Origin: Weissella confusa
GTDB lineage: Bacteria > Bacillota > Bacilli > Lactobacillales > Lactobacillaceae
Length of the DNA: 64,000 nucleotides
Direction: 5' to 3'
Assembly: GCA_014332815.1 (NCBI GenBank)
Contig: JACSZT010000003.1
Coordinates: 1-64,000 of the forward strand
Made by a program: the position numbers and the translations under genes. A model generated the notes under the pieces. It was not told where the DNA came from. It made no database searches and saw nothing but the letters and a program-made list of their open reading frames with translations. Numbering within the stretch: the stretch's first letter is position 1; each line of letters opens with the position of its first letter. Of the stretch, positions 1-60,471 are shown piece by piece.

Positions 1-198
1 TTTAACTTTGGAATAGTAAGTAAAAAATAAGCGTCCGAACTTTATTGTTCATGAACTGAACCCCATGAGTTGGAGTAAATCTAACTCATGGGGTTTTCTT
101 ATGTTCTCGAAAGAAATTCAAATTGAAGCAGTATCGATGTATCTCAAAGGTGTTCCGCCCGTTGCAATACGGCAAAAATTCGGAATCAAAGCTCATTC
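1..198 (+). mobile_element. End of an IS3-family insertion sequence with truncated transposase orfA
   Basis: R 1-98 (-) for the coding part. The ATG at 101 starts MFSKEIQIEAVSMYLKG and runs to the block edge with no stop, which looks like the helix-turn-helix N-terminus of an IS3/IS150-type OrfA. Just upstream, tgaactgaaccccatgagtt and its near-complement aactcatgggg form a terminal-repeat-like palindrome, typical of such IS ends. The fragment stops exactly at the record start, as expected when a draft contig breaks in a repeated IS. The family assignment is from the N-terminus only; the catalytic DDE part is absent. Confidence 0.6.
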
Positions 199-3168
199 CG
201 ACTGCCAACCCAGCAATCGTCATGTAGCGTGTCTTGCTACTCATCTTATCGAATAACATTACAGTTATTCTCCTCCTAAACTCGAAACACCCAATGGCCC
301 TTATCATCGGGCAAAATTAGTTAACAGTAGTTAATAATTGCATAGTGTTAACAAATAAGTAAGGGCGTTAACAAATGAACACTATAGCATGGTTTTGGCC
401 AGACATAAATTCCCAAGCAACACTATCATTATGACGTAGCTTATCAACAACTTTTTGGCCAACGGCCAACTTCGCACCATTATGCTTCACCGGTTGATCC
501 GCATTAACAACCGCCACCTTCAAAGAAGACGGCCCACCAGCTTGTGTTGCATCCAGCAACTGAAACAAACCAAAAGCAACACCGGCTGGCACACTCACTT
601 GCGACTTCAGCTGTTCCGTAACTGTATCGGCCAAAATACCACCAATGTAATTTGTGTGCTTTGACACTTCATACTTGATGTTTGACGTCTTTGGTTGCGC
701 ACTGAGCGCCGTCAACGTGTTGGCCGTAAAATCCTTAGGTAACGTCACTGTCATCAATGTATCACCGTCAGCTAGTGCACGTTTAGCTTGTCCGTTTGCG
801 CCAGTTTGGATTTCTCCCAAACCACTGGCTAGCGTGTGCAAATTACGATTGACTTCACCAGACCCGGAAGCTAGTTGGCCCATGCCATCATTCAGTTGCT
901 TTGTCCCAGCAGCCGCCTTGGCGGTACCGTCTGACAATTGCTTAATCGACCCTAACAATTCTTTGTTGTAGGTCTTTTGGATTTCGGCACTCGCAACTTG
1001 GCTTGAACCGCTCGCCAATTGTTGCGTCGCTGCTGGTAACGCGCCAACGCTATCACGCAATTGGTTACCGCCATCGGCCAAGCGATCAATACCAGTTGAC
1101 GCTTGGTCAATCCCGTCGGCCAACGTACTAGCACCAGTGGCCAATCGATTTGAACCACCTTGCAATTGCGAAACCCCATCCGGCAATTTGATTGTTGTTA
1201 AACCAGCTGACAGTTGCGTTGACAGTTGCTGTGCACCAGCCGCTAGTTGTTGGTTACCTGAAGCAACTTTTGTAGCCCCAGCAGTGAGGCTTTTTGCACC
1301 ATCACCCAAAGCCACGACACCATCGCTGGCAGCCTTAGCCCCCGCAACAAGCGCCGGTGTATTTGAAGCTAATTGATTCAATCCCATAAAAGCCCCAGCA
1401 CCAGCACCAACTGTGGTCAAATCCGTTTTCAGGTTAGCCATGTTCGTCGCGAAGTCGACCTTACCGGCATCGCCAAGGCTAAGCCCTTTCGTTCCTTTCG
1501 AAATTTGACCCAATCCGTCGTTTAATTGGTTCAAACCGGCCGTCAACTTTTGCAAGTCAGCCGCATTAGTTGCTTGGCCTTGTAGTAACGACGGCAATAG
1601 CGCTGACAACTGTGGTAGCAATGGCACTAATGGTGTTAGTGCATCCCCAACTTGTTGCGCTTGTGTCTCTGCATCCGTCACGGTGCCTACTTGTTGCAAT
1701 GCTGTCATGTACTTGCCTTTGAACTCTGCATTATGGCTGTCATTCAAGAATGTTTGAAATTGCGGATCATCCACCAGATCCAGTCCGCCAGACAAAGTGA
1801 CCAATCCCGTTTGCACTTGCAACGCACCGGCAGACAATTGTTCTGCTGATGAGGCTAGTTTATCAGCCCCCGCAACAGCTCCGTCAAGCTGTGATGCAAT
1901 TTGGTTGACTTGCGTTGAAAACTTATCAATCGCTTGTAATGCACCAGAAGTTGCCAATTGACCGTTTGTTCCCATTTGTAGTGCCGGTGTATTTGCCTGC
2001 AATTGATTTAACCCATCAGACAATTGACCAACCCCAGCAACAAGGTTCGGCGTCTTATTAGCCAATTGTTCATTACCAGTTGCGACTTGACTGGCGCCAC
2101 TAGCAAGTTGGGCAACCGCGACATTAGCTTGTCCCAATCCTGTGTACAAAGACGGCATCTTCGCGGCCAATTGTTGTTCATCATTCAACGTCTTAGTTCC
2201 TGTCACAGCAGTCTTAACACCTTCATTTAACTTATCATCCCCAGTTGCCAATTGTTGGGCACCTGAACTTGCCGTATGCAACGCATCAAGTAACGTTGGC
2301 ACCTTGCCAGCCAACGTGTTCACACCGGCTGACAATTGACTAGCACCACCCGCTAATTGTTGGGCGCCATTTGAAGGACGGCGCTCATTCATCTGAATTA
2401 GCAACGCGCCAATAAACAATGCAAAGGCCAACAACGCTGGACCGAAAACTGCCTTGTAATCAGCAACCGTCATTTGGCGATCAACTTGCTTTGAGGCAAC
2501 TGGGCTTACAAAGTGATTAATTGTCTTCGAACCAAGATGGATTGGTTGTAGCTGCTTCACACCAGCTTGTAACGTGCCAAACAAAACATCCAACAGTAGC
2601 GTTACGAGCATGAATGCCGTCGCAACGATGAACGTAAACAAGAACGTTGCTAACAAGTTAGCATCAATCTTGAAAATCGCAATAACCCCGGTCATCAAGA
2701 CAGCTTGCAATACTGGCAAAATAAACAACGTACGCAAACCAGCAATCGCGGATACCTCAGCAGTCATACGACCCAATGCGATTGTCGCCGCCCACACACT
2801 CATATATGGCGTGTGATTAATTAAAGCATCGTAACCTTGAGCTGCATACGTCGTTGGTAGAAACCTAGCGATCGTCGCTAACGTTGCATTCAAGAATTCA
2901 CTCGGCACAATTTGACCTGACAAAACAATTTGCGCCATAGCCACAATAACTGAAATTAGCAAACCAACCTATCCACCTTGAGAACGTGGTCTCAGCTTTG
3001 ATTTAAAACTCAATTGCATAACACAAAAAGGACTATCGCGAGATGTGCGATAGTCCTTTTCTTTTTAACTGAATACTTACTCAACTTCGGGTTGTCGTTG
3101 CATCATCACTGGGAACGAGTTCTTCATCCCCCACAATGCAACTGCACCACCGATAATTCCAAAGACAA
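199..3168 (-). CDS. YhgE/Pip-family membrane protein (908 aa)
   Basis: R 336-3062 (+). Restored, it has the family layout: an N-terminal membrane segment, the characteristic KVAVVNADQPV stretch, a WEFMSGRQAKRAL region, then a very long central part of degenerate heptad-like repeats rich in QLASG/GxxQL, and a C-terminal block of about five membrane helices ending [10 protein letters not shown]. The family resembles ABC-2-type permeases and phage-infection protein Pip; it acts at the cell surface and its substrate is unknown. RBS aggagg precedes the ATG at 259. In the raw window the order is reversed (permease helices first, N-terminus last), which is the clearest single sign of the block artefact. 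A strong hairpin terminator follows. Confidence 0.85.
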
Positions 3169-58600: not shown

Positions 58601-60192
58601 CCACCAACTCGGCAACCGTCGCAATTGTTCCAGCACGGAATACGTTATTCTCACCAAACAGTGACTTCATATAGTTGTGGGCAAATGGTTGGTAGTCACC
58701 TGAGAAATTCAAATCGATATCGGGAACCTTGTTTCCCTTAAATCCCAAGAAAGTCTCAAACGGAATATTGTGCCCATCCCCAATCAACTTCGTCCCATCA
58801 ATTGGTAAATCATCAGCTGGGAACTGAATTGGTGTGAAGTCATAGATTTCCATGTCGTCCGGCACAATCAAAATACCAGCCGGGTGTTGCCCAGTCGTAC
58901 GCTTAACACCGGTTGCTCCCATCGCCAAACGTTCAACTTCAGCACCACGGAAACTAATATCGTGGTCACGCTCATAAGCCTTCACATATCCAAACGCTGT
59001 CTTGTCAACACCCAACGACTCTGGTGATGAGAACAAGCTCATAACACCCGGATCGTTCATCGGAATTGTTTGTGGGTCGATTCCTGACATATCCTGTAGG
59101 GCACGAATCATCGTCGGATCATCGTGTCCCAGAATATCCATCTTCAAGATATTATCGTGAATTGAGTGGAAATCGAAGTGCGTCGTACGCCAAGTAGCTG
59201 AAGTACCGATTGTCGCCACACCACGTTGAATCAACTCATCAGCGTTACCACGCCAAACGTCAGTACCGTGAGACAGACCAGAAATCTGTAGCAGTTCTGA
59301 ATAATTCTTAGGGTGCGTCTCTTCCAACATACCGCGAACAAAGGCGGTACCAAATTCAGGCACACCCAACGTTCCTGTCTTAGAGAAGATTTGGTCCTCA
59401 GCACGCGGGAACATATACTTAATCTTCAAACCAGATTCGATATACCACTCCGGTACACCAGCGGCACGCATTTCTGCTTGGTACTCATCTGAGATTCCCT
59501 TACCCTTACGCACCTTTTCCATGATTTGGAATGATGATTCAGGTTGTACACCGTAGTTAATCAAGTCGGTCATGATCTTGTCACGCGTTCCGATAACCTT
59601 ATCCTTAGCCGATGCTTCATTTCCCATCTTACGAATCTCTTGAATACGTGCTTTGGTCGTGTTCAATCCACGAGACATCGCCACGATATCAAAGTTGCTT
59701 GCACGCACAGAGAAGTAGGCTGCGTAGTACAACGTTGGGAAGTACACCTTAAAGTAGGCAATACGTAACGCCATCAAAACATACGCTGCCGCGTGGAATT
59801 CACGTTCCGCACGCGCAGCAATAATACGCTTGGCAACGTTATCTCCCAAACCTGGTACGGCGTTAAATGGTGCAATCAACGTATCACCGTCCAACAACCA
59901 CTGTTCTGAATCAGACTTATAAAGATCAACCATGCTGAACTTAATACCACGTTCAAGCGCTTCATTAGCTAACTCTAGCACAGTCATCAAATCCACGAAT
60001 ATTTTCCGAACAATACAAAAGGGACTCCCATCACTGAGAGTCCCTTGTTTTATATCTATATATAGTAGTTTCTATTAGAACAAAGCCAATTGGTTTTCAT
60101 CCGGCATCCCCGCAAGCACACCGTTTTCATCAAGATAATCCATCAACGTCTTAGAAACACCACCACGTTGGGCAAGATCTTCCTTTGACAAA
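55639..60192 (-). CDS. polC: DNA polymerase III PolC-type alpha subunit (1439 aa)
   Basis: R 55793-60112 (+). Main replicative polymerase of Firmicutes with built-in 3'-5' exonuclease. Restored: [17 protein letters not shown]-fold with [15 protein letters not shown] parts, PHP domain [17 protein letters not shown]..., exonuclease with [40 protein letters not shown] and [20 protein letters not shown], polymerase core with [48 protein letters not shown] and [15 protein letters not shown], and the end [12 protein letters not shown] gaagggag before the ATG at 55682. The raw window shows two large frames in reversed order. Confidence 0.94.
55769..55802. terminator. Terminator upstream of polC
   Basis: Hairpin aaaacgccatcca / tggatagcgttt beside an A run. 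Confidence 0.7.
60015..60047. terminator. Terminator after polC
   Basis: Hairpin aaagggactcccatc / gagagtccctt. Confidence 0.8.
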
Positions 60193-60471
60193 TGTTTCAT
60201 CGAAACGATATTCAGTTTTCAATGACCTACGTCGTCGCCTTGACGACTTAATCTATAATACAGAAGTCATAATCAATTGTCAACAACTAATTTCACTTTC
60301 TGTTCACATGTTGTTCACATGCGTCGTACCTGTTATTTGGTACTTGAATAATATACCCCTAAATGGAATGTTCGTCAACTGCTAAGATTATTAACAGAAG
60401 TTAAACGAATTTACTAGCGAATTGACTTCGCAAATGTTTTTGCATCAAGCTTAGCTTGATGACCCTACACA
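60193..60471 (-). promoter_or_regulatory. Tandem rRNA promoters and 16S leader
   Basis: R 60193-60471 (+). Two strong promoters read on this strand: TTGACG at 60373-60378 with TATATT at 60350-60355, and TTGACA at 60278-60283 with TATTAT at 60255-60260, both 17 bases apart. Downstream lies a leader with antitermination-like gtcgtcaaggcgacgac and gaaaactgaat. The record ends within this leader, just before 16S would begin. Confidence 0.75.

What the first reader, a model, noticed from the sequence alone, without database searches (positions are those of the whole stretch)
1..60471. Strict 198-base blocks, each reverse-complemented in place
Every checked gene has its protein segments of 66 residues in reverse order, with joins exactly at multiples of 198 from base 1. 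Restoring the blocks rebuilds over 50 normal-length genes (for example MurF 454 aa, MreB 329 aa, PurA 430 aa, PolC 1439 aa), and all but one of them keep frame. This is the main structure of the window and it makes the raw frames misleading. No known recombination gives hundreds of equal, adjacent, phase-locked inversions. The likeliest source is reverse-complementing a wrapped sequence file line by line, or a planned scramble.
Basis: partly seen in the sequence, partly recalled or inferred. Interest (0 to 1): 0.95.

Follow-up and report, generated by a model that had tools for sequence, protein, structure and literature searches.

The report
The window is ordinary Weissella DNA whose file was damaged when a program flipped the sequence piece by piece, in 198-letter steps, instead of as a whole; it is a data error and not biology, but it makes the genes in it look shuffled.

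Summary
In each unit of 198, bases 1-197 are reverse-complemented in place. Base 198 stays untouched on its original strand (294 of 299; a full 198-base flip fits 67 of 299, chance). The lattice starts at contig base 1, ends at 60472, and restarts at 60473 with phase 82, still present near the contig's end. In sampled stretches of the same assembly some pieces carry the lattice and others are normal, even inside one contig. Three composite contigs suggest the mechanism: scaffold order calls for the minus strand of each scrambled piece, yet chunks were flipped singly and never reversed in order. At three piece ends tested, the last chunk is flipped whole, as if the spared character were a newline. 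I conclude that a scaffolding or export step reverse-complemented contigs in 198-character chunks: an artefact, which probably also explains the 66.5% completeness.

The parts
1..60472 (.). Sub-contig Y (corresponds to G005:C1 252757-313851 plus repeat ends): 305 units of 198 (197 bases reverse-complemented in place + 1 base untouched) and one final 82-base chunk reverse-complemented completely
198..60390 (.). Spared bases at every multiple of 198: original strand, original place
   Evidence: 294 of 299 placed units equal the forward reference base; 67 of 299 equal what a full 198-base flip would give
60391..60472 (.). Last chunk of sub-contig Y, 82 bases, flipped with no spared base
   Evidence: 24 of 24 bases match G005:C35 from 181268 on full reverse complement, 4 of 24 if the last base were spared; only these 24 bases were compared
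60472..60473 (.). Join of two sub-contigs; lattice phase changes from 0 to 82
   Evidence: one match ends at 60472 and another begins at 60473; later 197-base HSPs begin at phase 82
60473..64000 (.). Start of sub-contig X (corresponds to G005:C1 26-252759), same lattice with phase 82, seen again near the end of C18
3132..4496 (.). murF, cut into 66-residue pieces in reverse order (intact homologue 454 aa in G005); coordinates approximate, by offset
   Evidence: family TIGR01143 for the G005 homologue; mapping
4647..5636 (.). mreB, same state (329 aa); approximate
   Evidence: family NF010539 for the G005 homologue
23275..25008 (.). EzrA-like septation ring regulator, same state (577 aa); approximate
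   Evidence: best match NF003409, 529 bits against a cut-off of 562; offset extrapolated, rows for this part were not printed
27900..30521 (-). Raw 873-aa open frame: P-type cation ATPase with its 66-residue pieces in reverse order (function read from recalled motifs, no family search)
30764..32056 (.). purA, same state (430 aa); approximate
   Evidence: family NF002223 for the G005 homologue; offset extrapolated
55792..60111 (.). polC, same state (1439 aa); approximate
   Evidence: family NF001688 for the G005 homologue

Best explanation
The sequence is a data-processing artefact in the source assembly. Shown: in the window and in sampled stretches of other contigs, some sub-contigs are reverse-complemented in place in 198-character chunks with the last character of each full chunk left alone; at the three ends tested the last chunk is flipped whole; other sub-contigs are normal. 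Shown in three composite contigs: the scrambled sub-contigs sit where the scaffold needed their minus strand. Inferred: a scaffolding, merging or export program tried to reverse-complement minus-strand contigs while reading a one-line sequence through a fixed buffer (for example fgets told 199 for a 200-byte buffer returns 198 characters). It treated the last character of every read as a newline and wrote the chunks out in the original order. The organism's own DNA is ordinary W. confusa.
For: 305 of 305 HSPs inverted, 302 of 305 of 180-219 bp, with 290 of 294 steps of exactly 198. Spared base 294 of 299 in the window and 694 of 703 placed units in 11 other stretches of C11, C14, C15, C18, C19, C20, C24; 177 of the 880 units there were not placed. 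C18 = Y then X, while G005:C1 = X then Y: the order of the reverse complement. C24 = scrambled G005:C22 ascending (sampled at 25.9-40.0 and 239.7-253.6 kb), then normal sequence from 25,840 down to 1. C19 = normal G005:C35 from 19,506 down to 8,983, then scrambled sequence ascending to 8,985. Last chunks flipped whole: C9 91 of 92, C19 50 of 50, C18 24 of 24, against 22 of 92, 9 of 50 and 4 of 24 if a base were spared. Normal stretches in the same assembly, for example C20 end 17.9 kb at 99.3% and C21 end 17.8 kb at 98.9%. Completeness 66.5% against 95-100% for the 27 other genomes of the genus. Of 301 family genomes searched, this one has PolC in 10 matches, best E 1.6e-39; none of the other 300 has more than 4 matches.
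Against: I found nothing that contradicts it. The program is not identified, no raw reads or depositor's contigs were available, and the buffer reading of 198 is a guess. Nine of 703 and five of 299 spared bases do not match, which strain differences could explain. Only three composite contigs test the orientation argument and only three ends the newline argument. Contigs C1, C8, C12, C16 and the start of C13 could not be classified with the reference fetched, and C2-C7 read as N.
Confidence: 0.97

Rival explanations
1. A planned scramble: someone, for instance the makers of this scan or of a test set, inverted equal blocks on purpose.
For: The pattern is very regular and starts at contig base 1.
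Against: It affects only some sub-contigs, changes phase at a contig join inside the window, follows in three composites the orientation needed in scaffolding, and flips the last chunk whole at three ends. A planned scramble has no reason for a spared 198th base or for these joins.
Confidence: 0.02
2. True biology: a recombination system that inverts 197-bp pieces along the chromosome.
For: None beyond the pattern itself.
Against: The joins fall at fixed file positions counted from a sub-contig start; ten of ten genes checked, murF, mreB, purA and polC among them, would be broken; a relative 99.2% identical inside the units is intact.
Confidence: 0.001
3. A real line-wrapped file (198 letters per line) reversed with a line tool such as rev and tr.
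For: Gives in-place flipping of each line in order.
Against: Would flip all 198 letters of each line, but the 198th is spared in 294 of 299 units, and only some sub-contigs are affected.
Confidence: 0.02

Closest known systems
Genome misassembly or mis-oriented contigs in draft genomes (general class, from general knowledge)
   Same: Real sequence present, order and strand wrong, intact in a relative
   Different: Usually one or a few large inversions at repeats; here inversions of fixed length 197 at fixed file positions, about 300 in a row in the window
Weissella confusa DSM 20196 contig JQAY01000001.1 (taken to be G005:C1)
   Same: Same genes in the same large-scale order over the window's first 60 kb, 99.2% identity inside the units
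   Different: Not scrambled

Membership tests
Sequence-processing artefact (chunk-wise reverse complement) | Inversions of constant length at constant phase counted from a contig start | tested here: met
   290 of 294 steps are exactly 198; phase 0 from base 1
Sequence-processing artefact (chunk-wise reverse complement) | Independent of sequence content: no recombination site at the joins | tested here: inconclusive
   Joins fall at multiples of 198; no motif search at the joins was made
Sequence-processing artefact (chunk-wise reverse complement) | Only sub-contigs needed on the minus strand are affected | tested here: met
   Met in the three composites that could be resolved, C18, C24 and C19; the other scrambled contigs were not resolved and do not test it
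Sequence-processing artefact (chunk-wise reverse complement) | Last chunk shows end-of-line handling | tested here: met
   The three ends tested (C9, C19, C18:60472) are flipped whole; other ends were not tested
Sequence-processing artefact (chunk-wise reverse complement) | Raw reads disagree with the file at the joins | not testable with these tools
   No reads held
Weissella confusa | At least 95% nucleotide identity to the type strain, in the window | tested here: met
   99.2% inside the window's placed units. Elsewhere, long normal stretches: about 98.8-99.3% in C24, C20, C21 ends, 95.4-98.5% in C13 and C22 ends; lower in some scrambled stretches (C20 start 93.4%, with 38 of 52 units not placed). 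No whole-genome ANI was computed; G005's name is inferred

The most novel reading that the evidence does not exclude
The same program fault has damaged other public assemblies, and in this case made a duplicate 'species': this genome and G005 are both listed in a set described as one genome per species, although they are 99.2% identical inside the window's units (it may be there only as the window's own assembly; not checked). Alignment-based species clustering may fail on chunk-inverted sequence, and shuffled proteins from such records may sit in public databases.
Probability: 0.4. Interest if true: 0.35.

Novelty: not a real feature. Interest (0 to 1): 0.15.

Why it matters
As biology it is nothing. 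As data hygiene it matters: frames stay open because 198 is a multiple of 3, so gene callers would give plausible long proteins whose 66-residue pieces are in the wrong order, while a usual check shows only low completeness. Gene, operon, synteny or novelty claims from the affected parts of such an assembly are unsafe. The signature (197 flipped, 1 spared, phase reset at sub-contig joins) is simple enough to screen for.

Tried and rejected
Taking C18 as a circular 313-kb replicon: C18 begins and ends at the same point of G005:C1 (about 252,757), which looks like a circular permutation. Rejected, because the two lattices (phases 0 and 82) show two sub-contigs laid in the order of the reverse complement.

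Taking the unit as a full 198-base flip: rejected by the spared base. Periods 197 and 199 failed as controls, and a phase shift of 99 gave 54-59% identity. Total open-frame length is weak evidence: flipping at 60, 66, 99, 120, 180 or 396 gave totals like raw and 198 (21,732-22,893 against 22,750 and 23,823), because frames stay open either way; frames of 200 residues or more sum to 14,315 raw, 16,120 (198+0), 16,543 (197+1) and 17,522 in G005.

Finding the source strain in print: a search for W. confusa with '24 contigs' listed one paper, PMC12982343, of which I saw passages only; it describes a 2,322,326-bp genome, not this one. A search on the genome size listed 10 of 12 papers, none of them by title on Weissella. 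Searches for a description of this kind of fault (listings with titles and starts of abstracts, 10 of 86, 2 of 3 and 3 of 3) showed nothing relevant; they were few, and the library is partial. The scan of viral contigs with the raw ATPase frame gave nothing of use.

Full report
What was checked. The window is bases 1-64000 of contig C18 (312,453 bp) of an unnamed assembly, G000, of 2,294,552 bases in 24 contigs with 66.5% completeness. Its genus is Weissella by its best named relatives. The nearest genome found in the genus, G005, has a first contig of 313,851 bases; W. confusa DSM 20196 contig JQAY01000001.1 has the same length and the ATPase match at the same position (281,397), so I take G005 to be that strain.

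A 2,622-base query from the window met G005 in 14 matches; the 13 that are listed are 197-211 bases long, 96-99% identical and all on the minus strand, yet rise together in query and target. Over C18:1-80000 there were 305 matches to the held part of G005:C1, 305 of 305 on the minus strand, 302 of 305 of 180-219 bases. Of 305 units of 198 bases, 299 were placed without gaps, 5 were not and 1 ran off the reference; 290 of 294 steps were exactly 198. The five unplaced units are 0, 42, 168, 225 and 240; one search lists shorter or gapped matches inside units 0, 42, 225 and 240, and its middle rows, which would show unit 168, were not printed.

The unit is 197 + 1. Identity by position in the unit, where printed, is 293-299 of 299 at positions 1-6 and 189-197, and falls to 67 of 299 at position 198 if the whole unit is flipped. 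The 198th base instead equals, in 294 of 299, the forward base of the reference just past the flipped 197. In eleven stretches from seven contigs (C11, C14, C15, C18, C19, C20, C24) the same rule held in 694 of 703 placed units, against 161 for the full flip; 177 of 880 units were not placed. Those stretches and their phases were chosen from the matches.

Where it starts and stops. In the window the lattice begins at base 1. The last chunk, 60391-60472, has 82 bases and is flipped whole as far as it was compared (24 of 24 bases against a repeat copy; 4 of 24 otherwise). At 60473 a new lattice begins with phase 82 and is seen again from C18:307,181 to 312,327; C18:80,001-295,000 was not fetched.

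Which parts of the assembly are affected. From sampled stretches compared with sampled stretches of G005, the lattice is in C9, C10, C11 (both ends), C14 (both ends), C15 (both ends), C18 (1-80,000 and the end), part of C20, part of C19 and C24 (at 3-17 and 216-229 kb). It is absent in C17, C21, C22 and C23 where matched, in the ends of C13, C20 and C24, and in part of C19. If the unfetched middles agree with the ends, about 0.83 Mb is affected (my sum of contig lengths; most of that was not fetched), roughly a third, which is in line with the missing third of marker genes. C1, C8, C12, C16 and the start of C13 could not be judged; C2-C7 read as N.

Why it is a faulty reverse complement in scaffolding. 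C18 carries G005:C1 in two pieces, 252,757-313,851 first and 26-252,759 second. That is the order of pieces in the reverse complement of G005:C1, but within each piece the order is forward and only the 197-base chunks are flipped. C24 carries scrambled G005:C22 in rising order (sampled at 25.9-40.0 kb and 239.7-253.6 kb; the last 1.6 kb is broken up by repeats), then 5.6 kb without a match in the held part, then normal sequence for 25,840 falling to 1. C19 carries normal G005:C35 19,506 falling to 8,983, then scrambled sequence rising to 8,985. In these three the scaffold order is right for the minus strand, the pieces that needed no flip are intact, and those that needed one were flipped chunk by chunk. 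At the three sub-contig ends tested the final chunk is flipped whole (C9 91 of 92, C19 50 of 50, C18 24 of 24). So in full chunks the last character was probably spared because the program took it for a newline, and in the last chunk it really was one. A fixed read buffer would give this; 198 characters is what fgets returns when told 199 for a 200-byte buffer (my inference from general knowledge of C, not shown).

Effect on genes. Ten proteins read from G005 in the region include MurF (454 aa), MreB (329), a RodA/FtsW-type protein (398), NagA (391), EzrA-like (577, below the cut-off), PurA (430), ProS (573) and PolC (1439); one had no family match at the threshold and one was an ABC transporter. 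In the raw window the best match of each covered 65-403 residues. With 198-base flipping all ten were full length at 98.0-99.5%, with the 197+1 rule full length at 98.2-100%. Two near-miss controls, 196+2 and a phase shift of 1, were also full length but less identical for each gene than the 197+1 rule (96.5-99.1%); periods 197 and 199 gave fragments and a phase shift of 99 gave 54-59%. The longest frame, 1,445 residues in G005, appears at that length only under the 197+1 rule (927 under 198+0). The frame survives because 198 is divisible by three, which is why the raw frames are long and misleading.

How common. In 301 genomes of the family, drawn evenly from a larger group and G000 among them, PolC was in many pieces only in G000 (10 matches, best E 1.6e-39); no other genome had more than 4 matches. 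The search scored at most 2 candidates a genome, so match counts are lower bounds, and the test sees only faults that fall on this one gene. Four other genomes (G060, G189, G195, G209) had only weak PolC matches; I did not follow them up.

Verdict. The finding is a correct and sharp observation of a file fault. It is not a biological feature. Its use is as a warning and a screenable signature.

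Noticed in passing
window 52-197: The first unit holds sequence with no match in the held part of G005:C1 and a reading frame that looks like the start of an insertion-sequence transposase (family recalled, not tested); the sub-contig ends seen lie in repeats shared with G005 contig ends.
   Followed up: partly
window 7127-7129 and 8515: G005 has about 714 and about 213 extra bases at these points: strain differences.
   Followed up: no
L012 and L013: Two records titled W. 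confusa DSM 20196 stand in a collection described as one genome per species, possibly a labelling problem.
   Followed up: no
G000 contigs C2-C7, parts of C1 and of the start of C22: Read as N in the held copy.
   Followed up: no
G060, G189, G195, G209: Only weak matches to PolC in four family genomes, one of them (G060) listed at 99% completeness in a single contig.
   Followed up: no
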